Positions 4,038 through 61,483 of a stretch of 64,000 bases of DNA are shown here, piece by piece. Position 1 is the first letter of the stretch. Every line of letters begins with the position of its first letter. Both the position numbers and the translations under genes were made by a program. Origin of the DNA: a virus; IMG/VR virus record IMGVR_UViG_3300050343_000215, positions 62,001 to 126,000 of that record, one strand, 5' to 3'. The notes under the pieces are model-generated. The model was not told where the DNA came from. It was given only the letters and a program-made list of their open reading frames with translations, and ran no database searches.

Positions 4038-4061
4038 AAAAAAGGTGGCATTAATGCCACC
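4038..4061 (-). terminator. Rho-independent terminator abutting a start codon
   Basis: On the minus strand GGTGGC-ATTAAT-GCCACC is followed by six T and then immediately the ATG at 4037. It lies downstream of the gene ending at 4122 and upstream of the oxygenase gene, so it separates the two units. Confidence 0.8.
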
Positions 4062-4121
4062 TATAGAGGGTTTTACATGCCGCGCCACCAATTCTTTAAC
4101 TGGAAATTGGAAACCAGTACA

Positions 4122-5760: not shown

Positions 5761-5832
5761 TGCTTGATGACGGGATTGAACCGCCGACCGCCTCGGTGTA
5801 AACGAGATGCTCTACCGCTGAGCTAATCAAGC
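5761..5832 (-). tRNA. tRNA-Val (TAC)
   Basis: Full cloverleaf on the minus strand: acceptor GCTTGAT/ATCAAGC with discriminator A, D-arm GCTC..GAGC, anticodon stem TCTCG/CGAGG with loop TTTACAC, T-arm GGCGG-TTCAATC-CCGTC. No encoded CCA. Confidence 0.92.
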
Positions 5833-5835
5833 ATA

Positions 5836-5917
5836 TGGGCAGGGTTGGATTTGAACCAACGTAGGCAGAGCCAGTGGATTTACAGTCCACCTCCATTAAC
5901 CACTCGGACACCCACCC
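5836..5917 (-). tRNA. tRNA-Tyr (GTA)
   Basis: Minus strand class II tRNA with a long variable arm. Anticodon stem GTGGA/TCCAC with loop CTGTAAA; T-arm ends TTCAAATC; acceptor GGGTGGG pairs with CCTGCCC through two wobbles; discriminator A. Three bases from tRNA-Val. Confidence 0.92.
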
Positions 5918-5920
5918 AAA

Positions 5921-5992
5921 CTCCCAAGGCTGGATTTGAACCAGCGACCAGCCGATTAACAGTCGGCGGCTCTGCCACTGAGCTACTTGGGA
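5921..5992 (-). tRNA. tRNA-Asn (GTT)
   Basis: Minus strand: acceptor TCCCAAG/CTTGGGA, anticodon stem GCCGA/TCGGC with loop CTGTTAA, T-loop TTCAAAT, discriminator G. Its first ten bases overlap the end of the 54-residue reading frame at 5983-6147. Confidence 0.92.
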
Positions 5993-6147
5993 TTGTTTTG
6001 TTCTCTCTTGAGTTTAAAGTACAATTTATAGTATCTATTACACATTTCTCTAAGAATTTTATGGTCTTCAGTAAAACCAAGATTCTTAGTATGTGTACAT
6101 GATCCTTCCATCTCACTAATAAGAAGAAGAATTTCAACTGGTTTCAT
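5983..6147 (-). CDS. Small ORF inside tRNA array
   Basis: 54 residues, ATG 6147 (MKPVEILLLISEM). The frame fills the space between tRNA-Thr and tRNA-Asn, and its stop TAG lies within the 5' acceptor/D-arm junction of tRNA-Asn. Charged C-terminal half (YKLYFKLKREQNN). Unknown function; the fit to the gap and the low density of stops support it, but it is short. Confidence 0.5.
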   Translation of the reverse strand: MKPVEILLLISEMEGSCTHTKNLGFTEDHKILREMCNRYYKLYFKLKREQNNPK

Positions 6148-6169
6148 AATGTAATGCCTCAAGAGAGGA

Positions 6170-6241
6170 AGCCCTCAGTAGGATTTGAACCAACGACCTA
6201 CGCTTTACAAAAGCGTTGCTCTACCACTGAGCTATAAGGGC
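6170..6241 (-). tRNA. tRNA-Thr (TGT)
   Basis: Minus strand: acceptor GCCCTTA/TGAGGGC, D-arm GCTC..GAGC, anticodon stem ACGCT/AGCGT with loop TTTGTAA, T-loop TTCAAAT, discriminator T. Confidence 0.92.
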
Positions 6242-6245
6242 AAGG

Positions 6246-6319
6246 CGACTCAGGTGGGACTTGAACCTACGACCGACTGCTTAGAAGGCAGTTGCTCTAT
6301 CCATCTGAGCTACTGAGTC
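6246..6319 (-). tRNA. tRNA-Arg (TCT)
   Basis: Minus strand: acceptor GACTCAG/CTGAGTC, anticodon stem ACTGC/GCAGT with loop CTTCTAA, T-loop TTCAAGT, discriminator G. First tRNA behind the promoter at 6328-6356. TCT reads AGA, a common codon in this AT-rich phage. Confidence 0.92.
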
Positions 6320-6356: not shown

Positions 6357-6893
6357 TTATCCTTCCGTCTTGATTTTCACAAAGTTTGCAGCGAAAGCAA
6401 TTCTCTTATCTTTAGTTGGAAATACATTATGATCCACAATTCCTGGAAACAATACCAACATACCATCTTTAGGTTGAATTTGCAATTTGTTTTCAAAAAC
6501 TATAGGAGAACTTTTTTCAGTGATACTGATATAATAAACACAAGAAAAATCTGCAGGATAATGATTATGTTTATATGCACAGTCACCCTCAGAATACTTC
6601 ATTGCCCAAAAATTTTGACACTCATAAAAAGTATGACTATCATTAAAGTAATCTTGATTGGCATCATAGATGACTGCAATAATTTTTTCAATCAAAAAAT
6701 TAAAATCTTTTGTATCTTTCCTGGTATAAAATTCTGTTCTCCATGCATCAACATTAGTTCCTTGCTTCAAACCTTTTGGATTTAATTTCTGATGATCATC
6801 AATGATACGGATAAGTTTTTCGTTTAATGACTGATGATCATCTATAATGGTTGTAAATACTGGAAGTTTTTTTACGACATTATAAGTTTCCAT
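6357..6893 (-). CDS. 2OG-Fe(II) oxygenase-like protein (TIGR02466/PF13759 type)
   Basis: 178 residues, ATG 6893. Core motifs: His109-Asn-His111 in YKHNHYPADFS, the strand CVYYIS, the turn GMLVLFPG, distal His155 in GIVDHNVFP and Arg164 in KRIAFAAN. This arrangement matches the putative 2OG-Fe(II) oxygenase family found widely in marine phages. The start overlaps the upstream gene's end by 14 bases. Substrate unknown. Confidence 0.8.
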   Translation of the reverse strand: METYNVVKKLPVFTTIIDDHQSLNEKLIRIIDDHQKLNPKGLKQGTNVDAWRTEFYTRKDTKDFNFLIEKIIAVIYDANQDYFNDSHTFYECQNFWAMKYSEGDCAYKHNHYPADFSCVYYISITEKSSPIVFENKLQIQPKDGMLVLFPGIVDHNVFPTKDKRIAFAANFVKIKTEG

Positions 6894-16799: not shown

Positions 16800-17132
16800 T
16801 TAGTTCTGAAAGGTTTTAATGAAGTACTCAGCGTCAATTACTACTAAAGGTTTCTTACCATTTTTTTTGATAATTACAATAGGTTCATAATCACCGCAAT
16901 TGGATGCCGATTGTTCGTAAGCATCCCAGACATTTAGTTTCTCCACGTTCTTGCATTCTACACTATGGGGGAACTTTTGTCTAGCTGCTCTTGCCATAAT
17001 GAGATCTTCTCCACCAGCACCCATTGATCTAGATTCAATGTCCTCAGGATGTACGCTAAGATGTTCAATCAATTTATCCCTAACCCACTGCTGTAACTTT
17101 CTACCCTTCGCTTTAGCACTCTGTGGTTTCAT
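16800..17132 (-). CDS. Small PD-(D/E)XK nuclease-like protein
   Basis: 110 residues, ATG 17132. Motif set Asp43 (GAGGEDLIMA) and Glu59-Cys-Lys61 (SVECKNVEKL), followed by a Gln-containing helix (WDAYEQSA), matches a minimal restriction-endonuclease-like core such as archaeal-type resolvases. Could resolve Holliday junctions or trim DNA ends. The ATG directly follows the T-tract of a terminator. Confidence 0.65.
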   Translation of the reverse strand: MKPQSAKAKGRKLQQWVRDKLIEHLSVHPEDIESRSMGAGGEDLIMARAARQKFPHSVECKNVEKLNVWDAYEQSASNCGDYEPIVIIKKNGKKPLVVIDAEYFIKTFQN

Positions 17133-17166
17133 AAAAAAATACCCCCATCATATGATGAAGGTATTT
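17133..17166 (-). terminator. Rho-independent terminator with late box in its 5' arm
   Basis: Minus strand AAATACC arm (17166-17160), palindromic inner part CATCATATGATG, GGTATTT arm and seven T, ending at the ATG 17132. Confidence 0.75.
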
Positions 17167-17168
17167 AG
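17161..17168 (-). promoter_or_regulatory. Late-type promoter box CTAAATAC nested in terminator
   Basis: The box overlaps the 5' arm of the terminator and lies about 29 bases before ATG 17132. Transcripts starting from it would lack the 5' arm. Confidence 0.55.
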
Positions 17169-17169
17169 A

Positions 17170-17316
17170 TTACATTAAGATGTCATCCCACGGATCTGGT
17201 ATCTGTACTTTATCGCCTGTAAGTGGAATGCCTGAGCCAGACTTGACGGACCTAGTTTCAGTAATGTCCACTCTTCCTCTGTCAGTTTTGGGTCTGCTAA
17301 TGCTAACAGTTTCCAT
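17170..17316 (-). CDS. Small hypothetical protein after nrdB
   Basis: 48 residues from ATG 17316 (METVSISRPK), 13 bases after the nrdB stop; the longer frame upstream overlaps nrdB and is rejected. Polar (TDRGRVDITETRSVKSG). Co-transcribed with nrdA/nrdB. Confidence 0.5.
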   Translation of the reverse strand: METVSISRPKTDRGRVDITETRSVKSGSGIPLTGDKVQIPDPWDDILM

Positions 17317-17329
17317 GGTGGTGGTGTTT

Positions 17330-18478
17330 TCACAGTTGAAAATTAGCGAAAGTATCTTTCTTAACATCCTGCTTAATTCCTCCAACAATGTAACTTTCAT
17401 TCTCAGTTTCCTGAGGTGCTACCTGAAGACCTTTAGAAGAGATCCAATGCTCAGTCCATGGTAGTGGATTATTTCGTGCAGCAATATCATAAACTGGTTT
17501 CAGACCGATTGCTTTCATACGACGGTTGGCAACCCACTCAACATACTGTGTAAGAAGTTTAGCATTAAGACCAATCATAGAACCTTCTTTGAACAAATAG
17601 TCTGCCCAGACACGTTCCTCACTTACCGCTGTCTCAAATGCTTGATAACACCATTCTGTTTCTTCTTCAGCGATGCGAGCCATGTCTGGATCGTCTCCCT
17701 GTTTCCATTTATTGATAATGTTCTGTGTAAGAACAAGATGTTGGTTTTCGTCTCTGGCGATGAGAGAGATGATTTTAGCGGATCCCTCCATGAGTTTAAG
17801 CTCTCCAAAAGCAAATGAACAGGCGAACGAGACATAGAACCGGATTCCTTCAAGGATGTTGACATTCATAACAGCGCGAAACAACTTACGCTTGAGTTCG
17901 TAGAGGTCATCCTCTGCGAGGGGAACTCCATCAAGATTGTGTTCCCACATTCTACCGCTACCATATTCTTGAGCATGATTAATAAACTCATCATACGCTT
18001 TGGTAACAGTCTCAGCGCGTGATATAATCATATCATCTTCTAGGATGGTGTCAAGCACTTCTGCTGGATCAGCATAAACATTTTTGATTACATGAGTATA
18101 TGAACGACTGTGGATCATCTCCATGAAACCCCAGACTTCCATACATGCTTCTAGTTCAGGCAGAGAACAGTAGGGAATGAATGCCATACCAGGAGCACGT
18201 CCCTGAACTGAGTCAAGCATGATCTGATACTTCAGATTAGAAGTAAAGATATGCTTTTGTTCTGGACGCAACGATTGGTAATCACCCCGATCTTTTTGTA
18301 GGGAGACCTCTTCAGGACGCCAGAAATATCCCAGTTGTGTTTGCGTTAATCTATCAAATACTGGATACTTATATTGATCATAACGCTGCACCCCCAGAGG
18401 AGCACCAAAGAACATAGGTTGCTTTAATGTATCAACTTTATCCTTATTGAATACTGTCATTCCTTTAACTGTTGACAT
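17330..18478 (-). CDS. nrdB: Ribonucleotide reductase class Ia beta subunit
   Basis: 382 residues from ATG 18478, which aligns with the T4 NrdB N-terminus; a GTG at 18520 with AGGAGG upstream would add 14 residues. Diiron helices are visible: LPELEACMEVWGFMEMIHSRSY and the later ARDENQHLVLTQ. The subunit houses the tyrosyl radical used to make deoxyribonucleotides. Directly follows nrdA; together with talC it supports phage DNA synthesis. The C-terminal peptide would dock into NrdA. Confidence 0.93.
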   Translation of the reverse strand: MSTVKGMTVFNKDKVDTLKQPMFFGAPLGVQRYDQYKYPVFDRLTQTQLGYFWRPEEVSLQKDRGDYQSLRPEQKHIFTSNLKYQIMLDSVQGRAPGMAFIPYCSLPELEACMEVWGFMEMIHSRSYTHVIKNVYADPAEVLDTILEDDMIISRAETVTKAYDEFINHAQEYGSGRMWEHNLDGVPLAEDDLYELKRKLFRAVMNVNILEGIRFYVSFACSFAFGELKLMEGSAKIISLIARDENQHLVLTQNIINKWKQGDDPDMARIAEEETEWCYQAFETAVSEERVWADYLFKEGSMIGLNAKLLTQYVEWVANRRMKAIGLKPVYDIAARNNPLPWTEHWISSKGLQVAPQETENESYIVGGIKQDVKKDTFANFQL

Positions 18479-18500
18479 ATCGTTACCTGCTGTACCTGTT

Positions 18501-20807
18501 CTAAAGTTTACACGATTCACAATCTTCCTCCTGAGCGTTTTCTAATTGACTGATTAAATTTTCTAAACTTTCTTTGACATCCTCTTTATACTCGTCGGTC
18601 TTAATATCATATGTGTTTTGATAATAAGAAGTTTTCCAACCGTACTTATAAGTTGTGAGGAAGTCTTGTGCCATTACTGAGACAGGAACCTCATTGTCTT
18701 TGTAGTTCTCTGGATTATAACTCCAATTGCCAGAAATTGCTTGGTCAAAGAACTTCTGCATCAGAGAAACAATTTTAATGTAACCACCATTGTCAGGCAT
18801 CTCCCAAAGCAGAGTATAATTGTTCTTCAACGTAGTATATTGTGGAACAATCTGCTTAAGAACCCCCTTTTTACTTTTCTTAATGGACAGAAAGGCTCTA
18901 GGTGGCTCAATTCCATTTGTTGCGTTTGACACAACGGAACTGCTCTCCGATGGCATCTGAGCGGACAGTGTTGAATGTCGTAATCCGTGGGTGGCGATAG
19001 ACGCCCTAAGAGAATCCCAATCATAGGTTAGTTCGTTAGGTACAATATCATCAACATCCTTCTTATAGGTGTCAATAGGGAGGATGCCATCACTATACTT
19101 GGTGCGGTGGAAGTATTCACATGATCCTTTCTCCTTAGCAACTTCATTAGAAGATTTTAGAAGGAAGTATTGGAATGCTTCAGACAGTTCATGTACTGCT
19201 TTCCAAGCACCAGGATCATCGTAATGCTCGCCCCTGCGAGCGAGATAATGTGCAAGACCAATAAAACCAATACCAAGAGATCTTCGTGCCTTTGTAGACC
19301 GTTCTGCAGCAAATACAGGGTATTCTTGATAGTCAATCAATTCCTCAAGAGCACGGACAGAAAGATCACAGAGTTCTTCCATTTCAGAAAGTTTATGAAT
19401 CTTACCTACATTGATAGCAGACAAGATACACAAAGCAATCTCACCACCAGGATCATCAATGTGAGTAAGTGGTTTAGTAGGCAGTGTAATCTCCTGACAA
19501 AGATTACTCATATAAACTTTATCTTTAAATGAAGAATGCTCATTGCAGTGATCAATGTTCATGATATAGAGACGACCAGTCTCTGCACGTTCTTTCAAAA
19601 GATCTAGAATAAGTTCTTGAGTCTTGATAGTCTTCCTTGGAATGAGTCCATCAGATTCATAATGTTGATACAGAGCATCAAAGTTGTCAGTGCCAAAAGC
19701 ATCAAAAAGACCTGGAACATCGTGAGGTGAGAAGAGTGACATCTCCTCATCTTTGATGAATCTTTCATAGAAGAGTTTTGAGATTTGGATTGAGTAGTCA
19801 AGTTTTCTGACACGATTATCCTCTGTACCTTTGTTGTTCTTCAGGACAATAATATCTTCTATTTCTTGGTGCCAGATTGGGAAGTGGACGGTTGCTGATC
19901 CTCCACGAATCCCATTTTGCGTGCAGCATCGTACAGTTGATTCAAACTTCTTAAGGAATGGAACAACACCTGTGTGTGCAACTTCTCCTCCTCGGATCTT
20001 AGCATTGATGCCACGGATTCTACCTGCGTTGATACCAATTCCCGCCCTCTGAGCAACATAACGACCAATAGCCATGTCGCTGCTAAAGATGCTATTGAGG
20101 GAGTCATCAGAATCAATAAGAACACAGCTTGCAAATTGTCGCAGTGGTGTTCGGACTCCTGCCAAGATTGGCGTTGGGACGTTGATTTTGTGTTTGCTGA
20201 TTGCGTTGTAGTATTTTCTGACATATTCTAGTCTAGTTTCCTTAGGATAATCTGCAAAAATTGTGGCAGCAACAAGAATATATGCATACTGTGGGGTCTC
20301 ATAAACTCTATTAGAACTTCTATCTTGCACCAGATACTTATCTGCTACTTGACGTAGACCAGCATAGGTGAACAAATAGTCGCGACCATGATCAATAAAT
20401 TTATCAATCTTGTCCCACTCCTCGTCAGAATATTTATCAATAAGATCTTGATCGTAGATACACTTTGAAATTCCTTCAGTCAAATGAGATTTAATTTCAG
20501 GAAAACCTTCCTTCCAGTCTGGTCCAAACACTTGCTTGTAAAGACCAAACAATAGCAGACGAGCTGCCACAAATTGGTAATTAGGATTATCTAATGAAAC
20601 TAAATCACTAGCAGAACGAACAAGAATCTCTTGGATATTATCTGTGCTAATACCATCATAAAATTGAAGACCAGAATTCATTTCTACTTGACTAGCAGAT
20701 ATCCCCCCAAGTCCTTCACATGCACACTCAACCATTAAATGAATCTTTTCCAAGTTGAGTGGTTCAATCTCACCACTACGCTTAACAACTTTGATTCCGT
20801 TACTCAT
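18501..20807 (-). CDS. nrdA: Ribonucleotide reductase class Ia alpha subunit
   Basis: 768 residues, ATG 20807, normal length. An N-terminal ATP-cone (1-90) is retained. Catalytic residues: Cys228 (FASCVLID), Asn435-Leu-Cys437-Gln-Glu439 in SNLCQEITLPT, Cys460 (EIALCILSA), the radical-path Tyr pair in TSYYQNT, and the shuttle thiols at the C-terminus (EEDCESCKL). Reduces ribonucleoside diphosphates. Start overlaps the primase stop by four bases. Confidence 0.95.
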   Translation of the reverse strand: MSNGIKVVKRSGEIEPLNLEKIHLMVECACEGLGGISASQVEMNSGLQFYDGISTDNIQEILVRSASDLVSLDNPNYQFVAARLLLFGLYKQVFGPDWKEGFPEIKSHLTEGISKCIYDQDLIDKYSDEEWDKIDKFIDHGRDYLFTYAGLRQVADKYLVQDRSSNRVYETPQYAYILVAATIFADYPKETRLEYVRKYYNAISKHKINVPTPILAGVRTPLRQFASCVLIDSDDSLNSIFSSDMAIGRYVAQRAGIGINAGRIRGINAKIRGGEVAHTGVVPFLKKFESTVRCCTQNGIRGGSATVHFPIWHQEIEDIIVLKNNKGTEDNRVRKLDYSIQISKLFYERFIKDEEMSLFSPHDVPGLFDAFGTDNFDALYQHYESDGLIPRKTIKTQELILDLLKERAETGRLYIMNIDHCNEHSSFKDKVYMSNLCQEITLPTKPLTHIDDPGGEIALCILSAINVGKIHKLSEMEELCDLSVRALEELIDYQEYPVFAAERSTKARRSLGIGFIGLAHYLARRGEHYDDPGAWKAVHELSEAFQYFLLKSSNEVAKEKGSCEYFHRTKYSDGILPIDTYKKDVDDIVPNELTYDWDSLRASIATHGLRHSTLSAQMPSESSSVVSNATNGIEPPRAFLSIKKSKKGVLKQIVPQYTTLKNNYTLLWEMPDNGGYIKIVSLMQKFFDQAISGNWSYNPENYKDNEVPVSVMAQDFLTTYKYGWKTSYYQNTYDIKTDEYKEDVKESLENLISQLENAQEEDCESCKL

Positions 20808-24135: not shown

Positions 24136-24143
24136 TATTTATA
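24136..24143 (-). promoter_or_regulatory. Late promoter box TATAAATA
   Basis: Starts at the end of a terminator T-tract and lies 34 bases before ATG 24102. Confidence 0.75.
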
Positions 24144-24166
24144 AAAAAAGGGGAGTAAGACTCCCC
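24143..24166 (-). terminator. Rho-independent terminator
   Basis: Minus strand GGGGAGTCTTACTCCCC plus seven T, downstream of the gene ending at 24190. Confidence 0.85.
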
Positions 24167-25394: not shown

Positions 25395-25940
25395 CTGAGC
25401 ATAATATCTCTAATCTTATCCATAAGTTCTCTACAGTCTCTATCAGAAATAGTTCTAGGCATTCCTGCTCTAAATGAATTAAAGTCAGATTGAACTGCTG
25501 CTGCTCTCATCTTACTAGCAGACATACCCTCAGCACCATCAGCATCAGGATCTCTCTCACCAGCAGATACTACTTCCAAATTTCTAAATGTATATTCAAT
25601 ACCATTATACTTACTAATCATTTTATCATATGATTGTACACGATCTGATCCTGCTACTAGAACACAGTCATGATATGTTCCCTGTAATTGCTGTAATGCT
25701 TGAATAATAGTTTTAATGTGAGGGTCATATATGATATTCCTACTCATCGTAGGAAACATTTTTTGCATTACTTCAGATTTAGTTTTAGAATCTAGAGGAT
25801 TCTTCTTCTTGTCCTGTGTATGTGTAGGGGTAGATAAAGAAATCATCCTGACCAGCAATGTTCTTGACTGACAGTAGAAGTTTCTCATGTCCGATGGTTG
25901 GTGGGTTAAATCTACCCCATGCAAATACTACTCGTTTCAT
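25391..25940 (-). CDS. HIGH-type nucleotidyltransferase (NMNAT/cytidylyltransferase-like), one frameshift
   Basis: From ATG 25940 the protein starts MKRVVFAWGRFNPPTIGH, the nucleotide-binding TxGH motif of the cytidylyltransferase superfamily. The frame breaks at a four-C run (25827-25830 on the plus strand reads GGGG); removing one base restores IYPTHTQDKKKNPL and the rest of the fold, ending with the second motif MSASKMRAAA. The 550-base length fits one extra base. It should transfer an AMP or CMP group to a phosphorylated small molecule such as NMN. Its ATG overlaps the stop of the ligase-like gene (ATGA), so the pair is translationally coupled. Confidence 0.75.
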
Positions 25941-28546
25941 TTATCTCCTGATACCCAGTCTTTGGATACGTTAAAGTTTGCTACACTAAATGACAAACGA
26001 TCCACTAACTTTACAGCATTGGTGCCACCACTGATGGCAACATAACCCTCAGGTGCTGTAACCTCATAACCATCTTCAGTCTTAAGATAAGTACCAATCT
26101 TCTCACCTTTTTCAAGTTTACGAATGAATACTAACTTCGCTTCTTGTAATAACTTATATAGTTGAACCGTACTGTTTAAAGAACTTTTATTCTTTTCAAT
26201 AAACTCTAGACCATCAAACATCTTCTTGAGTTTGGTTGCTTTTGCCTTCGGAGTTTTTACTTTATCAACTGCCTTCTGACATTCAGTCTCAAAATATTTT
26301 GTGAACTCTTTGTAAAAAGCATCAGGTGAAGGAACCGTTCTACCCTGACGAACATAAGCATTAAAGAAGATCTTCAGTCGTGGTCCAATAGTCAACTGAT
26401 CTTTAGCAACAATCTGCTCAGCAACCTCATCTAGAAATGCTCCTGCAGAGCGTACCATTGATGGTGCTTGAGTTCTCAATTGTCCTAGTTTAGTTTTCTC
26501 TCCCGTTGTGAGAAGTGTATCATTACCAAGTGTTCCTATCTCTGCACTTAGAACTAGAACATCTTCAGAAGATTTAAGTTGATTGACATTGAAACCAAAC
26601 GAAGCATTCATAGTACTGACATCATTGCCAGTATATGTGGTATGAAATACTACACCAAGTTTTGCTTTCTTTGCTTTCTCATAAAGATCACTATCTTCTG
26701 GAATAGCATATGTAATAGTATTAGGTTGAAATGTAATACAATTCTTTCCGTCAATCACCTGTTGCTTTTTATCAGTGGTGAATAAAAGATCACCCTGTGC
26801 AACTCCTTTGATACCTAATGCTGGAAGATATTTAAGTGATGCTTTTAGTTTTTCAACCAACCCTGCAGCATGACCATGATTCCTATCAATATCAGAATCA
26901 GCGTAGTTAATCTTGGCGTCCTTATTGAAAACTGATTTAGTTCCTACAAAGAAGTTATCAGTACCAGGATAGATACCACAAAATATAGCAGGTGCTCCAT
27001 CCCACTTTGTGGTAATCTTAAATGCATTAGACCCACCAGTGGTAAATGTTTTTGCCAGCAAATCTAAAAATTTAAATGCATCAGTAGCACCTTCCTTTCC
27101 ATCAAGTAAAATGCTGTCCTCTAAATGTTCTAAGTGAGTGTTCTTGCTCATCCCGATGTAGTCCTCCAGACCAGAACGTTTCTCAACATAATTACGGATT
27201 GCTTTAGGAACACCACCAGTTCCTTTCTCCATCTTAAACCGGAACTGGACTAACTCATACTTCTTATTATCATTTTCATTAGTACCAGAGACTCTAACTG
27301 TAGGTAAACCGCTAGCACCTGTAACATAATCAGAACTTAATTTAAGGTTAGCAGGAACGTCTGCATCAGGGAATCCTACCAAAGCAACTTTTAATTTTTT
27401 AAAATCATATCTGTGGAATGTATCACCTTTGATCTCAACCAGTGCAACGTTCTCTTCTTTATATGTTGCAAAATTATCTAATACCTCAACAAAATTTTCC
27501 AACCATACTTTATTATTAAACTTTTGCTGTAATTGACCATCAGCCCATGTGTAAACTCTCCTCATAGTTTCAGCAGCAACCTCCTCCGTGGTTCCCCTCA
27601 TCTCAGCAGAGTCAGCATAGATCTGCTGAACAATACTAGATATAGATGGTTTGCTGCCAAGGATCTTACCCCACAAATTATCCATTTTATCAAGAGTCCA
27701 TCCACCAACTTGAGCAAACTGATCAACATCTTTCTTCAATGAGATTTGAGTCAATCGCAACTGTGTACCATTAACAGTACCGGGAATAGAAATGTTCTTA
27801 GAGTTATTGATGATAAGATTCACATCAACTTTTGTTCCTGTCTCATCACCAATACCATCAGCGATCACATCAATATAATCTTTCTTACCATTGCGATACA
27901 TCATCAGTGCCGCAGTATTAATCTCCTGTGAATTTGCATACGAAATACATGCTGGCATTAATTCCTTCAATGCCACATACTCATCAGGATCACTGGTGAA
28001 CAGCATATCCATATTTGCTGCTGTAAGGTTTACAACTACCTTAACATCATCAAACAAAAGTTTTCTCATCTTAGGATGAGGAGCATTAGGTGACTGGAAT
28101 ATCTTACCTGACGAAGTTCCAGATCTTGTAGGTTTAACTGCATTCAAAACCTTAACGAGATCTTGTTCTGTAATTCTTTTATTCTTATTTAAAAATCTTG
28201 CAGTAATAGCAAATGCCAGAATACCTTCCGCTACGTTTCCAAGGTTATACTTCTTTCTGGGACTTCCTACACTTACATTTACCTTAAGAATTGCACCTAA
28301 TGAAATCTCACCACCACCAAGTTTAGGGAAAGAATATCCTCTACCCTTCTTAAATTGTTCCATACCAATTTGAGCATTGGCATCAAAACTATTAGCGTTC
28401 TTTAAAAACCCCCAACGCTTGTCACTCTTGTCTATAGTTACATGTCCATCCTTAGTAAGAAGTGCGACATCATTCCGAACTTTCTCAGCAAAAGTTTTCC
28501 AATAGTGAGTACCATTGGATGCTTTTTTGAATTCGGCAATACCCAT
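25937..28546 (-). CDS. Large protein with nuclease-like and ligase-like motifs (DUF6267-type)
   Basis: 869 residues, ATG 28546, one base after a terminator T-tract. The N-terminal half contains a restriction-fold-like pattern: Asp241 in TKVDVNLIIN and Gln267-Ile-Ser-Leu-Lys271 in LRLTQISLKK. The C-terminal half contains the covalent nucleotidyltransferase motif I Lys514-Trp-Asp516-Gly517 (TTKWDGAPAIF), a possible motif III (GVAQGDLLFT, 580-590) and motif IIIa/IV-like strand (LGVVFHTTYTG, 630-640). This suggests an enzyme that can form a lysyl-AMP, as RNA and DNA ligases do. Activity is not established; similar cyanophage proteins are annotated as unknown. Confidence 0.65.
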   Translation of the reverse strand: MGIAEFKKASNGTHYWKTFAEKVRNDVALLTKDGHVTIDKSDKRWGFLKNANSFDANAQIGMEQFKKGRGYSFPKLGGGEISLGAILKVNVSVGSPRKKYNLGNVAEGILAFAITARFLNKNKRITEQDLVKVLNAVKPTRSGTSSGKIFQSPNAPHPKMRKLLFDDVKVVVNLTAANMDMLFTSDPDEYVALKELMPACISYANSQEINTAALMMYRNGKKDYIDVIADGIGDETGTKVDVNLIINNSKNISIPGTVNGTQLRLTQISLKKDVDQFAQVGGWTLDKMDNLWGKILGSKPSISSIVQQIYADSAEMRGTTEEVAAETMRRVYTWADGQLQQKFNNKVWLENFVEVLDNFATYKEENVALVEIKGDTFHRYDFKKLKVALVGFPDADVPANLKLSSDYVTGASGLPTVRVSGTNENDNKKYELVQFRFKMEKGTGGVPKAIRNYVEKRSGLEDYIGMSKNTHLEHLEDSILLDGKEGATDAFKFLDLLAKTFTTGGSNAFKITTKWDGAPAIFCGIYPGTDNFFVGTKSVFNKDAKINYADSDIDRNHGHAAGLVEKLKASLKYLPALGIKGVAQGDLLFTTDKKQQVIDGKNCITFQPNTITYAIPEDSDLYEKAKKAKLGVVFHTTYTGNDVSTMNASFGFNVNQLKSSEDVLVLSAEIGTLGNDTLLTTGEKTKLGQLRTQAPSMVRSAGAFLDEVAEQIVAKDQLTIGPRLKIFFNAYVRQGRTVPSPDAFYKEFTKYFETECQKAVDKVKTPKAKATKLKKMFDGLEFIEKNKSSLNSTVQLYKLLQEAKLVFIRKLEKGEKIGTYLKTEDGYEVTAPEGYVAISGGTNAVKLVDRLSFSVANFNVSKDWVSGDK

Positions 28547-28547
28547 T

Positions 28548-28567
28548 AAAAAACCCCCTTACGGGGG
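28548..28567 (-). terminator. Rho-independent terminator
   Basis: Minus strand CCCCC-GTAA-GGGGG followed by six T, ending one base before ATG 28546. Confidence 0.85.
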
Positions 28568-28575
28568 TATTTATT
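28568..28575 (-). promoter_or_regulatory. Late-type promoter box AATAAATA touching terminator stem
   Basis: The box ends at the first base of the terminator 5' arm and overlaps the mazG stop. Initiation would fall within the hairpin, before ATG 28546. Confidence 0.55.
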
Positions 28576-28972
28576 AGAGATCTCCTGCTACTCGGTTTTC
28601 CGAGCGTTCAATACTAAATGTTCCTTCGGGGTAACGAGAACTCAGTTTTTCAAAATTCATCTGAATGATTTCCTCAAGCGAAATGTTGAGACCAATACAT
28701 GCTTGCATAACATACCACATGATGTCTCCAAGTTCACGTTTCAGATGAAACATTTTCATATCAACAGGTTTACCCTGGAAAACAATCTTCTTCACAATCT
28801 CAGTAAACTCACCTGCCTCAGCAGACATTCCTACAGCAGCAGTAAGCAATCGCTCGGGAGGAAAACCTTCTTTTGTAAGTTGATAACAACGATAGTGAAT
28901 TCAGTGGATCTTTGCTAGGTTCCTGTGAGGTAACCTCATTAACAAACTCGGCATACTTTTTTGATCAATCAT
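28574..28972 (-). CDS. mazG: MazG-like nucleotide pyrophosphohydrolase, frame interrupted
   Basis: Reconstructed from ATG 28972 (MIDQK then YAEFVNEVTSQE) to the stop at 28574, about 132 residues. Catalytic set AEAGEFTEIVKK and ELGDIMWYV supplies the Glu/Asp magnesium ligands. Two shifts are needed: one base missing in the A-run near 28957-28963 and one extra near 28893-28902; the net length stays divisible by three. Only the C-terminal 91 residues are in one open frame. Cyanophage MazG hydrolyses nucleoside triphosphates and has been proposed to affect ppGpp or recycle nucleotides. Start overlaps the gp41 stop. Confidence 0.75.
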
Positions 28973-40076: not shown

Positions 40077-40736
40077 TTAGTTAGAGTCGGGCTCAAGTGC
40101 AATCCAATATGTCAAAGGAATCGCCTGATGCTGAAAACAACTAATCAAACGCTTAGACATAGTGACCTTGTAATCACCCTTAAAGATTTTCAAGTTCTCA
40201 ACCTTCATGTTGAGTACAAATTCATCAGCAGTCGCACCAACATCAACAGAAAAAGTATTTGAAGTATCGTTTTCTTTATCACGAACTACCACAGAGATCT
40301 TCTCACCATCACCAACAACAGAAAGATCAGGGAGATTGTTGACTGCTGCCATACGAATCAAACGATCAAGATCTTTTGCCGTCAAAGTAAAACTCACATC
40401 TTCAGAAGGAAGTGTGGGATTATCTTCTGGTGCTTTCTTAATCAGACTAGGATCTGCAAAAAAGTACTTCATAGAAGAACCCGTGTCAGTAATTTTTACA
40501 TGATGATCAGCACCAAACTCCATGTCTGCACCATGCATCAGAATCATATTGCTGAGGAACTCACTCAAATCATAGATAGCAAAATTTTGTGGAAATGCTT
40601 CTGTGACATTTGCTTCAGCAAGAATATTTTCTGCGATAGAGAATGTGCGAAGTCTATTGCCTGCTTCCACGGCGATGGATTGATTGATTGAAGAAAAATT
40701 CTTCAAAATTTCAAACGTATCGTTAGATAATTTCAT
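40077..40736 (-). CDS. gp45: Sliding clamp (T4 gp45)
   Basis: 219 residues from ATG 40736 (MKLSNDTFEILKNF), which matches T4 gp45; ATG 40742 would add two residues. Typical beta-clamp segments: FAIYDLSEFLSNM, SVDVGATADEFVLNMKV. Trimeric processivity factor for gp43 and, in T4, mobile activator of late transcription with gp55. Both partners are encoded here. Confidence 0.92.
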   Translation of the reverse strand: MKLSNDTFEILKNFSSINQSIAVEAGNRLRTFSIAENILAEANVTEAFPQNFAIYDLSEFLSNMILMHGADMEFGADHHVKITDTGSSMKYFFADPSLIKKAPEDNPTLPSEDVSFTLTAKDLDRLIRMAAVNNLPDLSVVGDGEKISVVVRDKENDTSNTFSVDVGATADEFVLNMKVENLKIFKGDYKVTMSKRLISCFQHQAIPLTYWIALEPDSN

Positions 40737-40738
40737 AG

Positions 40739-41022
40739 TCATTGAGGGTATTCTTCAGTAATGTTGGATTTGTCAGAGAAATGGAGAAGGAGTAATCCGT
40801 AGTGTAGGATCTTAATGATAATGTCGCGACGGGCAGTACCTTTACGATCATAGCGTGAAGCATACTTTAGAATGTTACTTCTACAGAATGCTTCAGCATC
40901 ACCACAGGACTCAATCAAATCTAACGTTTGAATCTCATCGTTGCCAGCAGAATAATGTTGCCATACGTCCCAGAGATGTAATCGCGCAACTCCTTTGAGA
41001 AGCGCTCTTCATTGTATTTCAT
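40739..41022 (-). CDS. DUF3310-like protein (SaV-type), frame interrupted
   Basis: Begins at ATG 41022 (MKYNEERFSKELRDYISGTYG) and continues in another frame as QHYSAGNDEIQTLDLIESCGD, AEAFCRSNILKYASRY, with a stop at 40739 overlapping the gp45 start region. One base appears missing near 40957-40963; the 284-base length agrees. DUF3310 proteins are widespread in phages and likely bind nucleotides or modulate nucleotide kinases, function unproven. Confidence 0.65.
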
Positions 41023-43012: not shown

Positions 43013-44058
43013 TATACCACCTCAAGTGCCTCAACGTACAGAGATTTCATAATCTCTTTTAACTTATGACTATCTAGGTTGGTATTAAGTTCATCAACAT
43101 ACTTCTCCAAAATAGTTAGAGTGTCTTCATGCTCAAGTTCTATGTCATCATCATCATCAACTTCTGTAGAAAAGTCTTCAATAATTTTAAGATCTAATGC
43201 AACATCTTGTAAAGAATTAATAAGATAATCAAACTCAGTATAATCTGTTTTATTTTCTACAACAACTTTTACTACAGTATCTTTATATTTTTCAACATCT
43301 ATATTATAATATTCATTTTTAGTGTCATCATAAAATATTTTATGAAACATTTCGTAAGGATTTTTAATATGCTGTAACTTTAGAGTTTCAGTATCAAAGA
43401 TATTAAATCCACGTTCATCAGCATAATCATTCCAATACATCTGATAGGGATTACCAATATATTGGAAGTTTCCTTTCTTACTTCTAGTATGATAATGACC
43501 CGACATCACCATCTTAAATTTAGAAAACTCGGAAACCTGCCTACCATGATTAGCAACGTAGGTAGGATTAGTTTTAAATCCTTCCATCTCCAGGTGTCCT
43601 AAGACAACCTCTGCCTCAGTTTCCCTCATAAGATTTACTGTTTGTTCTTCATTCTGATCGCAGATCCAAGGAAGATAAACCATCTTACGACCACCAACAG
43701 TAACCTCAGAAGGTCCAGTATAGACACGGAGATTATCATACTCCTGTAGAAGGCACTCCAAAGAATTAATCTCTAGAGTGTTCTTATAGAAAGCATCATG
43801 ATTACCGACCATCATATCAACAGTCACCCCCAGATCCTGCAAAGGATTGAAGATGTTTTTCCTAGACCAGTCAAGACTCCAGAAATCAATGTTGCGACGA
43901 ATATCAAACACATCACCCAGATGGATGACATGCTTAATTTTTTTCTTCTTTAATGTTGGGAAGAAAATATCATTATAGAATTTAAGAAAAAAATCATGAT
44001 AATCTTGATTACCTTTCTTAAATCCGTAGTGGGTATCAGTAATCAGGGCAACTTTCAT
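43012..44058 (-). CDS. gp47: Recombination endonuclease subunit gp47 (SbcD/Mre11-like)
   Basis: 348 residues, ATG 44058. Metallophosphoesterase motifs in order: LITDTHYGF, HLGDVFDIRR, MVGNHDAFYKN, VLGHLEM and MSGHYHTRS. Nuclease partner of gp46. Acidic stretch EVDDDDDIELEHED near residue 290. Start overlaps the gp55 stop. Confidence 0.93.
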   Translation of the reverse strand: MKVALITDTHYGFKKGNQDYHDFFLKFYNDIFFPTLKKKKIKHVIHLGDVFDIRRNIDFWSLDWSRKNIFNPLQDLGVTVDMMVGNHDAFYKNTLEINSLECLLQEYDNLRVYTGPSEVTVGGRKMVYLPWICDQNEEQTVNLMRETEAEVVLGHLEMEGFKTNPTYVANHGRQVSEFSKFKMVMSGHYHTRSKKGNFQYIGNPYQMYWNDYADERGFNIFDTETLKLQHIKNPYEMFHKIFYDDTKNEYYNIDVEKYKDTVVKVVVENKTDYTEFDYLINSLQDVALDLKIIEDFSTEVDDDDDIELEHEDTLTILEKYVDELNTNLDSHKLKEIMKSLYVEALEVV

Positions 44059-44531
44059 TTTCTAGTTTTTTGCTCAATGTTTTGTTTGATACTATTATAA
44101 TCAGAAGCGGAAAAGTTTAGTTCATTCTTATCAGCATAGAGGACTTCATCGTATCCAGAACGCTCAAGAATTTTGCTTTTAATTTCTAGTTGCTTCTTTT
44201 CTTTTTGAATTCTTCTCAAGAATGCATAGTAAATAATTTGAGTAAAGTATGCAAAAGGATTGCCACGATTGGGATCAAAGTTATCAATGTACTGAACACA
44301 GTTCTCAATACCATCACTAATCATGTCCTCACGGAAAGGATAGTTGATGAAGTTAGGACGGTAAGACAGATGCTGTGCGATCTTCAAGAAGCACTCACCG
44401 ATATAATTTGGTATCCTAGGGCGAGTGGTCTCTTCTGTCAAGGCTTTTTTTACAAAGTATTTGTAATCAGAGAGTGCCCTCAAGAACTCTTTATTATCTA
44501 CATAATGTTCTGGTTTCTTTTTGGATCTCAT
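44055..44531 (-). CDS. gp55: Late transcription sigma factor gp55
   Basis: 158 residues, ATG 44531. Sigma-2-like core: DMISDGIENCVQYIDNFDP and GNPFAYFTQIIYYAFLRRI. Directs host RNA polymerase to the TATAAATA-type late boxes found throughout the window, with gp45 as coactivator. Transcribed from a sigma70 promoter, matching its need to be made before late genes. Confidence 0.92.
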   Translation of the reverse strand: MRSKKKPEHYVDNKEFLRALSDYKYFVKKALTEETTRPRIPNYIGECFLKIAQHLSYRPNFINYPFREDMISDGIENCVQYIDNFDPNRGNPFAYFTQIIYYAFLRRIQKEKKQLEIKSKILERSGYDEVLYADKNELNFSASDYNSIKQNIEQKTRK

Positions 44532-47490: not shown

Positions 47491-47498
47491 ATATTTAG
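47491..47498 (-). promoter_or_regulatory. Late-type promoter box CTAAATAT
   Basis: 19 bases before ATG 47472, three bases after a terminator T-tract. Confidence 0.65.
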
Positions 47499-47500
47499 AT

Positions 47501-47523
47501 AAAAAAAGACCCCTTTCGGGGTC
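47501..47523 (-). terminator. Rho-independent terminator
   Basis: Minus strand GACCCC-GAAA-GGGGTC followed by seven T; the GAAA tetraloop adds stability. Ends the 57-residue gene unit. Confidence 0.88.
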
Positions 47524-47840: not shown

Positions 47841-47864
47841 AAAAAAAGACCCCTTAGAGGGGTC
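47841..47864 (-). terminator. Rho-independent terminator after gp23
   Basis: Minus strand GACCCC-TCTAA-GGGGTC followed by seven T, 25 bases after the gp23 stop. Confidence 0.88.
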
Positions 47865-47888
47865 TGTGTGGACCTGTGAGAGGTTATA

Positions 47889-60650: not shown

Positions 60651-61445
60651 TTAACCGACCATATCTAGTGGTGGTAACTCTGCTGCTAATTTAAATTCAC
60701 CAAGAATAGTTTCAATTTCTTCTTGTGCATCTTCATAGAACTCTCTTCCATTTAGAGTTGTACCACCAGGAAGTGATACGTTCTTAAATTTAATAAGGTT
60801 TTGTCCCCACTGACGTTTGATCAGAGCGGTAAGATATCTCTTTAACCATACATCATTATAAATTTCTGCTGCATTATTAGGATCAATCATTCTATAACAG
60901 TCAAGAATTAAATGTTGTCCTGCAGTAATATTACCCCAGTCAGTATCAATGTATAATCTATTTTCTCTTTTGTTAAATCTAATTGGTTTGAAGTTACCAA
61001 TTACAAAATCAAGAGTTTCAAGATACTGCTTAACCATATAGTAGTTCAAGATTTCCATTGAACCAAAATTATAAAAGTCATTCAAGAATAACTGGTACTT
61101 CATACTAAAAATATTTCCTGATGTCGCTGATGAACTATTATCATAAGCATAGACTTGCGTTACTCCAAGTACATGCTCAGGAACAGTAATATAGTTATTC
61201 TGCTCCTTAAAATCAGTACCAGCAATTGCACTGTTCGCTTTCGCGTCAGTAATCATCTGTTCAGTAATTTCTACCTTTAAAAATGTTTTGATGCTTCCAT
61301 CAAAATGACGCTCTTGGAAGAATTGAATAGCATCGTCCATGAGATCCTCAATCTGATCATCATCTACATTAATCTCTAGGACGGGAAAACCTAATTTCCT
61401 TAAGCAGTAGTCAACTAACTCCTGGCGTGTTGAGGGTCGTGCCAT
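60651..61445 (-). CDS. gp13: Neck protein gp13
   Basis: 264 residues, ATG 61445. gp13 pattern: STRQELVDYCLRKLGFPVLEINVDDDQIEDLMDDAIQF (start), LNDFYNFGSMEILNYYMVKQ, WGNITAGQHLILDCYRM, WLKRYLTALIKRQWGQNLIKF. Adjacent to gp14 with one base between stop and start. Late box upstream, nested in a terminator. Confidence 0.92.
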   Translation of the reverse strand: MARPSTRQELVDYCLRKLGFPVLEINVDDDQIEDLMDDAIQFFQERHFDGSIKTFLKVEITEQMITDAKANSAIAGTDFKEQNNYITVPEHVLGVTQVYAYDNSSSATSGNIFSMKYQLFLNDFYNFGSMEILNYYMVKQYLETLDFVIGNFKPIRFNKRENRLYIDTDWGNITAGQHLILDCYRMIDPNNAAEIYNDVWLKRYLTALIKRQWGQNLIKFKNVSLPGGTTLNGREFYEDAQEEIETILGEFKLAAELPPLDMVG

Positions 61446-61480
61446 GAATAAAAAAATACCCTAGTTTCCTAAAGGTATTT
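61446..61480 (-). terminator. Rho-independent terminator with late box in 5' arm
   Basis: Minus strand AAATACC ... GGTATTT hairpin (61480-61454) followed by a T-rich run that ends at the gp13 start codon. Confidence 0.65.
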
Positions 61481-61483
61481 ATC
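61476..61483 (-). promoter_or_regulatory. Late-type promoter box GATAAATA for gp13
   Basis: Overlaps the 5' arm of the terminator; 31 bases before ATG 61445. Confidence 0.6.

What the first reader, a model, noticed from the sequence alone, without database searches (positions are those of the whole stretch)
17133..17168. Late promoter box nested inside a terminator (three instances: 17161, 28568, 61476)
On the minus strand the late box overlaps or abuts the 5' arm of the hairpin (AAATACC...GGTATTT-T7 here and at 61446-61483; CCCCC...GGGGG-T6 at 28548-28575). RNA started at that box would begin inside the hairpin and lack the 5' arm, so it would not terminate, while RNA coming from upstream would. 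The T-tract runs directly into the next start codon. This would be a very compact insulator that blocks read-through and starts new late transcription within about 40 bases.
Basis: partly seen in the sequence, partly recalled or inferred. Interest (0 to 1): 0.6.

Follow-up and report, generated by a model that had tools for sequence, protein, structure and literature searches.

The report
Late promoter nested in terminator hairpin
A marine cyanobacterial virus packs a stop signal for upstream RNA, a late-infection start signal and a hidden ribosome-binding site for the next gene into the same ~35 DNA letters; the arrangement recurs in related ocean viruses, so it looks like a real switch, though no experiment has yet tested it.

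Summary
The three composites are real, although the box at 17162-17168 is CTAAATA, not ATAAATA. The phage is a T4-like cyanomyovirus; its 177.7-kb record has five composites and encodes gp55, gp45 and gp33.

The arrangement exceeds chance. Shuffling the box-to-ATG spacers gives 0.06 nested cases against 3 observed. Across 26 T4-like phage genomes, TAAATA is nested in hairpin-T sites 4.3 times as often as permuted 6-mers (p=1e-10), and 94% of nested sites abut a start codon, against 21% of other hairpin-T sites.

It is conserved. Site 3's block is nearly invariant from the box onward while upstream DNA is unrelated. Site 1's stem covaries over 24 sequences with the box fixed. In other relatives the box sits in the hairpin loop.

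The 3' arm is usually the Shine-Dalgarno of the next gene. Long RNA should therefore terminate and, if it reads through, hide that site; late RNA should lack the 5' arm and expose it. This is T4's late-promoter/hairpin switch (e, soc, I-TevI) with a terminator tail added.

No RNA ends were measured here; termination, start sites and translation are inferred.

The parts
17162..17168 (-). Site 1 late-type box CTAAATA; projected +1 at about 17156
   Evidence: invariant TAAATA in 24/24 distinct orthologues; CTAAATA is the Aeh1 late box (PMC1524935)
17137..17166 (-). Site 1 13-bp hairpin; 3' arm carries SD-like GGGGG
   Evidence: -15.3 kcal/mol; anti-SD duplex -9.7; covariation
17133..17139 (-). 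Site 1 T7 tract, abutting ATG 17130-17132
   Evidence: T5 near ATG in 22/24 RusA composites vs 3.5% of genes
16800..17132 (-). Gene after site 1: RusA-like resolvase
   Evidence: PHROG 244, E 7.8e-21
17170..17400 (-). 76-aa ORF upstream of site 1, same strand, downstream of nrdB (17330-18520)
28568..28574 (-). Site 2 late box ATAAATA, overlapping the TAA stop of the MazG-like gene; projected +1 at 28562
28549..28572 (-). Site 2 hairpin CCCCC-GTAA-GGGGG with A/T extension
   Evidence: -12.5 kcal/mol; anti-SD duplex -10.9
28548..28553 (-). Site 2 T6 tract, one base before ATG 28544-28546
28574..28849 (-). MazG-like pyrophosphatase gene upstream of site 2
   Evidence: PHROG 229 and Pfam MazG
25937..28546 (-). 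ORF after site 2 (PHROG 3560 plus DUF6267/PHROG 455)
61476..61482 (-). Site 3 late box ATAAATA; projected +1 at 61470
   Evidence: start of the conserved block in about 30 contigs
61454..61480 (-). Site 3 hairpin with GAAA loop and one bulge
   Evidence: -8.9 kcal/mol
61450..61456 (-). Site 3 T7 tract, then ATTC and ATG 61443-61445
60651..61445 (-). Gene after site 3: head-tail adaptor Ad2
   Evidence: PHROG 211, E 2e-46
24136..24166 (-). Related tandem form: GGGGAGTCTTACTCCCC-T7 terminator running into ATAAATA
47492..47523 (-). Related tandem form: GACCCCGAAAGGGGTC-T7 followed by CTAAATA
44055..44531 (-). gp55-like late sigma factor gene
   Evidence: 61% identity to Syn9 gp55, E 7e-59 (G000:106073-106528)
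40077..40742 (-). gp45-like sliding clamp gene
   Evidence: 38% identity to Syn9 gp45, E 6e-41 (G000:102086-102730)

Best explanation
Each composite is a three-way switch between two same-strand genes. Host or early/middle polymerase arriving from upstream transcribes the whole hairpin and T-tract and mostly terminates. Any RNA that reads through keeps the hairpin, which buries the Shine-Dalgarno of the next gene (the 3' arm, GGAGG or GGGGG; the T-tract is the SD-to-AUG spacer). Late in infection gp55-polymerase with gp33 and the gp45 clamp starts at the box (-13 to -6). The ~5-nt promoter spacer is the 5' arm or part of it, so late RNA starts after it, cannot form the hairpin, escapes termination and exposes the SD; its leader is only 15-25 nt long. 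Shown: anatomy, gene context, non-randomness, conservation, covariation, presence of gp55/gp45/gp33, SD placement. Inferred: start site, termination, timing, translational block. SD masking is strong at sites 1 and 2 and weak at site 3.
For: Sequence and projected starts. Enrichment of the nested box: odds ratio 4.3, p=1e-10; 3 observed vs 0.06 in spacer shuffles. 31/33 nested hairpins have an ORF start within 40 nt vs 21% of other hairpin-T sites. SD complement in the 3' arm: G>C in 25/31 nested vs 46/103 of other hairpin-T sites before genes, p=3e-4. RusA locus: 43 of 81 homologues keep the composite, box invariant, 95% of cells paired and 3 pairs changed on both sides; no shuffle reached the observed covariation score; SD paired in 23/24 full-length folds and T5 in 22/24 vs 3.5% of genes. 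Adaptor locus: nearly invariant block starting at the box while upstream sequence is unrelated. Box in the loop at the adaptor, DUF6267 and tail-fibre-assembly loci with different stems. Independent pattern scan: AAATACC..GGTATTTTTT hairpins with the box abut an ORF start in 21/34 viral cases vs 4/83 without the box (p=9e-11) and 1/13 in bacterial genomes. gp33, gp55 and gp45 found. T4 precedent (PMC3014915, PMC2988022).
Against: No RNA 5' or 3' ends, reporter or ribosome data. Site 3 has only weak SD complementarity (-4.1 kcal/mol) and about 8 of 33 nested hairpins carry the SD-like run in the 5' arm, so the translational layer is not universal. T4 late promoters favour A/T just after the box (PMC2988020), whereas these spacers are C-rich, which could weaken the promoter. 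38 of 81 RusA homologues lack the composite, and distant adaptor orthologues have the box without a terminator, so it is not essential to the gene. Sequences in the enrichment test are related, so p-values are optimistic.
Confidence: 0.68

Rival explanations
1. Transcriptional insulator only: the hairpin and T-tract terminate upstream RNA, late RNA starts inside, and the 3'-arm SD match is a by-product of G+C-rich stems.
For: T-tract conserved (22/24); tandem terminator-then-box arrangements are even more enriched (odds ratio 7.6) and need no SD masking; site 3 and about 8/33 cases lack an SD in the 3' arm.
Against: Strand bias of the SD-like run to the 3' arm in nested cases only; CCTCC/GGAGG stems with standard SD spacing at the RusA locus.
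Confidence: 0.17
2. Translational switch only, as in T4 e/soc/I-TevI: the hairpin hides the SD in long early RNA and late RNA lacks the 5' arm; the T-tract is just an A/T-rich spacer and does not terminate.
For: Closest experimentally established precedent; SD paired in 23/24 folds.
Against: T5 runs lie near only 3.5% of starts but at 22/24 composites; SD-lacking composites keep the T-tract.
Confidence: 0.08
3. No promoter: TAAATA arises because a bidirectional terminator needs an A-tract opposite its T-tract and the upstream gene supplies a TAA stop.
For: In the base register AAATACC is complementary to GGTATTT; some boxes overlap the upstream stop (site 2).
Against: The box is also kept in loops and after T-tracts, where pairing does not require it; it is enriched over permuted A4T2 6-mers; box-bearing hairpins abut start codons far more often than box-less ones of identical stem base.
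Confidence: 0.05

Closest known systems
T4 late promoter inside an RBS-sequestering hairpin (genes e, soc, 49, I-TevI; mobE of Aeh1)
   Same: Late box at the 5' arm, late RNA lacks that arm, SD paired only in longer RNA (PMC3014915, PMC2988022).
   Different: Here a T-tract makes the hairpin a predicted terminator; the box can sit in the loop; stems are short and the SD-to-AUG spacer is the T-tract. Termination is not mentioned for the T4 cases in the passages read.
Intrinsic (Rho-independent) terminator
   Same: G+C-rich hairpin followed by 5-7 T.
   Different: Contains a late promoter and mostly ends close before a start codon (31 of 33 within 40 nt).
T4-type late promoter (gp55/gp33/gp45)
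   Same: TATAAATA-like box, no upstream element needed; NATAAATA reported in S-PM2 (PMC2984593).
   Different: Immediate downstream segment is C-rich rather than A/T-rich and doubles as a hairpin arm.
Terminator followed by late box (tandem, e.g. window 24136-24166)
   Same: Stops upstream RNA and restarts late RNA in under 50 nt.
   Different: Promoter lies after, not within, the hairpin, so late RNA has no truncated hairpin and the SD is separate.

Membership tests
T4-type late promoter | TAAATA-core box a short distance before a gene | tested here: met
   ATAAATA at sites 2 and 3, CTAAATA at site 1; CTAAATA documented in Aeh1
T4-type late promoter | Phage encodes gp55, gp33 and gp45 | tested here: met
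T4-type late promoter | A/T-rich segment just downstream of the box | tested here: not met
   spacers are CCTTC, CCCCC and CCTTT against PMC2988020; in T4 this is a preference, not a strict requirement
T4-type late promoter | RNA 5' ends about 6 nt after the box | not testable with these tools
   no RNA data
Intrinsic terminator | Stable hairpin directly followed by a T-tract | tested here: met
Intrinsic terminator | RNA 3' ends at the T-tract | not testable with these tools
   no RNA data
T4 late-promoter/RBS-sequestering hairpin | Projected late RNA lacks the 5' arm | tested here: met
   (projection from the box position)
T4 late-promoter/RBS-sequestering hairpin | SD or AUG paired in the longer RNA | tested here: inconclusive
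   met at sites 1 and 2 and in 23/24 RusA orthologues; weak at site 3
T4 late-promoter/RBS-sequestering hairpin | Upstream early/middle RNA runs through and is not translated | not testable with these tools
   upstream genes are co-directional, expression unknown

The most novel reading that the evidence does not exclude
Marine T4-like phages use a general, repeatedly evolved cis-element in which one ~35-nt sequence is at once terminator, late promoter and SD switch; the promoter box can move between the stem base, loop and T-tract because late promoters need no upstream DNA. A further, untested possibility is that polymerase which has just terminated stays on the DNA and is captured by gp55 at the nested box, making the element a terminate-and-restart relay.
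Probability: 0.45. Interest if true: 0.75.

Novelty: new variant of a known kind. Interest (0 to 1): 0.6.

Why it matters
It would show that the T4 late-promoter/hairpin trick, known from a handful of T4 genes, is used in cyanophages as a gene-boundary device that also terminates upstream RNA. It gives a concrete sequence rule for predicting late transcription units in abundant ocean viruses, a cautionary case for annotation (a predicted terminator directly before a start codon need not mean the gene is cut off), and a very compact design for insulating a gene while making it switchable by a sigma factor.

Tried and rejected
ATAAATA counts alone: not enriched in the window, so dropped as evidence. 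Rfam scan of the window: only five tRNAs, no known RNA family at these sites. T4 itself: no TAAATA in the 5' arm, the loop or straddling the 5' base of its 40 hairpin-T sites, and a single marginal site in the looser listing, so the composite is not a general T4 feature by this scan. The MSAITINL (tail-fibre-assembly) family in more distant phages: box without terminator. The first motif table mixed registers and many weak hairpins; it was replaced by the projected-start definition. Published Syn9 transcription-start data could not be read (paper not held). Seven literature searches found no description of a late promoter nested in a terminator in cyanophages; the library holds open-licence papers only, so absence is weak evidence.

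Full report
Setting. The window is positions 62001-126000 of a 177,686-base virus record. Its genes match T4-like marine cyanophages, and the record encodes relatives of the three T4 late-transcription proteins: gp55 (61% identity to Syn9), gp45 (38%) and gp33 (61%).

Observation. All three composites are present on the minus strand. Site 1: CTAAATA 17162-17168, hairpin 17137-17166, T7 running into ATG. Site 2: ATAAATA 28568-28574, CCCCC-GTAA-GGGGG, T6, one base, ATG. Site 3: ATAAATA 61476-61482, hairpin 61454-61480, T7, four bases, ATG. Site 1 departs from ATAAATA by one base, but CTAAATA is the late box reported for Aeh1 (PMC1524935). Two further composites occur elsewhere in the same genome record: L184:17874(-), with the box at the base, and L186:14822(-), with TATAAATA in the loop. 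In all three window sites the upstream gene is on the same strand, so there is upstream RNA to act on.

Is it chance? The box alone is not enriched (23 vs 20.6 expected). The nesting is. In this genome 50 late-type boxes lie shortly before an ORF ATG; three are nested at the base of a strong hairpin with a T-tract, against a mean of 0.06 when the spacers are shuffled. In 26 T4-like phage genomes or large contigs (T4 excluded; 592 distinct hairpin-T sites), a box whose projected +1 lies inside the hairpin occurs in 33 distinct hairpins; relative to genome-wide abundance this is 4.3 times the rate of permuted A4T2 6-mers (p=1e-10), and the tandem form (box just after the terminator) is enriched 7.6-fold. 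An independent pattern scan gives the cleanest test: among AAATACC..GGTATTTTTT hairpins in viral contigs, 21 of 34 with a late box in front abut an ORF start, against 4 of 83 without it; in bacterial genomes, which are not expected to use gp55, 1 of 13. Phages share ancestry, so these p-values overstate independence.

Conservation. At the head-tail adaptor gene (site 3) about 30 contigs share an almost identical block from the box to the ATG, while the DNA upstream of the box is unrelated; the conserved unit starts at the box, as expected of a late promoter, which needs no upstream element (PMC2988020). At the RusA-like gene (site 1) 43 of 81 homologues carry the composite, S-PM2 among them. 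Over 24 distinct sequences TAAATA is invariant, 94.9% of stem cells pair, three stem pairs show changes on both sides, and none of 500 shuffles reached the covariation score. In more distant adaptor and DUF6267 orthologues, and at a tail-fibre-assembly-like gene, the box sits in the hairpin loop with quite different stems, for example ATCCCTACATG-CTAAATA-CATGTAGGGAT-T6 and CCTCCCC-TAAATAT-TAGGGGAGG-AT7. At one locus the box thus moves between stem base, loop and T-tract, while terminator and late box stay within about 40 bases of each other. Still more distant adaptor orthologues have the box and an SD but no terminator.

What the 3' arm does. 31 of 33 nested hairpins have an ORF start within 40 nt (other hairpin-T sites: 21%). 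In those, the 3' arm is the G-rich one in 25 of 31, unlike other hairpin-T sites before genes (46 of 103; p=3e-4), and anti-SD complementarity of -5 kcal/mol or better lies in the 3' arm in 55% against 19% for the 5' arm, the reverse of the other sites (21% against 44%). At the RusA locus the stem is typically CCTCC/GGAGG, the SD is paired in 23 of 24 full-length folds, 20 of 24 have a strong SD (17.7% of genes genome-wide) and 22 of 24 have five Ts near the ATG (3.5% of genes). Both a terminator T-tract and an SD are therefore kept.

Mechanism. The T4 box occupies -13 to -6 (PMC1524935), so +1 is the sixth base after it. At site 2 the five-base spacer is exactly the CCCCC arm and RNA would start at the loop. 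Folding energies fall from -15.3, -12.5 and -8.9 kcal/mol (sites 1-3) to about 0, 0 and -2 for the projected late RNA, whose leader of 15-25 nt exposes the SD. Long RNA should terminate, and read-through RNA should be poorly translated; late RNA should do neither. The start, the termination and the translational effect are inferences.

Relation to known systems. T4 genes e, soc, 49 and I-TevI, and mobE of Aeh1, have late promoters whose RNA lacks the 5' arm of an SD-masking hairpin (PMC3014915, PMC2988022). The present elements work like these and add a terminator tail and a movable box. I therefore call them a new variant of a known kind. They meet the tested features of late promoters except the A/T-rich downstream segment, and of intrinsic terminators by sequence only; the SD criterion is met at sites 1 and 2 but weak at site 3.

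Limits. No RNA data were available; the published Syn9 transcriptome paper is not held; literature searches cover only open-licence papers.

Noticed in passing
window 25937-28546: One 869-aa ORF here, but relatives (L001, L003, L009, L012, L017) carry two overlapping ORFs meeting near codon 465, matching two separate PHROG families; the window record differs by one base there, so either an assembly error or a true fusion.
   Followed up: partly
window 24136-24166 and 47492-47523, minus strand: Terminators followed immediately by a late-type box (tandem form), the more common arrangement in these phages.
   Followed up: partly
window 4038-4062 and 47841-47865, minus strand: Strong hairpin-T terminators running directly into an ATG without any late box.
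   Followed up: no
L226:15363 and L314:7390, minus strand: Composites with two late-type boxes, one just before the hairpin and one in its loop.
   Followed up: no
L599:4548-4572 and 6542-6566: One 7.3-kb contig carries two copies of the same ATAAATACCCCGAAAGGGGTATTTTTTTATGCG composite before different continuations, suggesting that the element can be duplicated or moved.
   Followed up: no
window 5761-6319, minus strand: Cluster of five tRNA genes.
   Followed up: no
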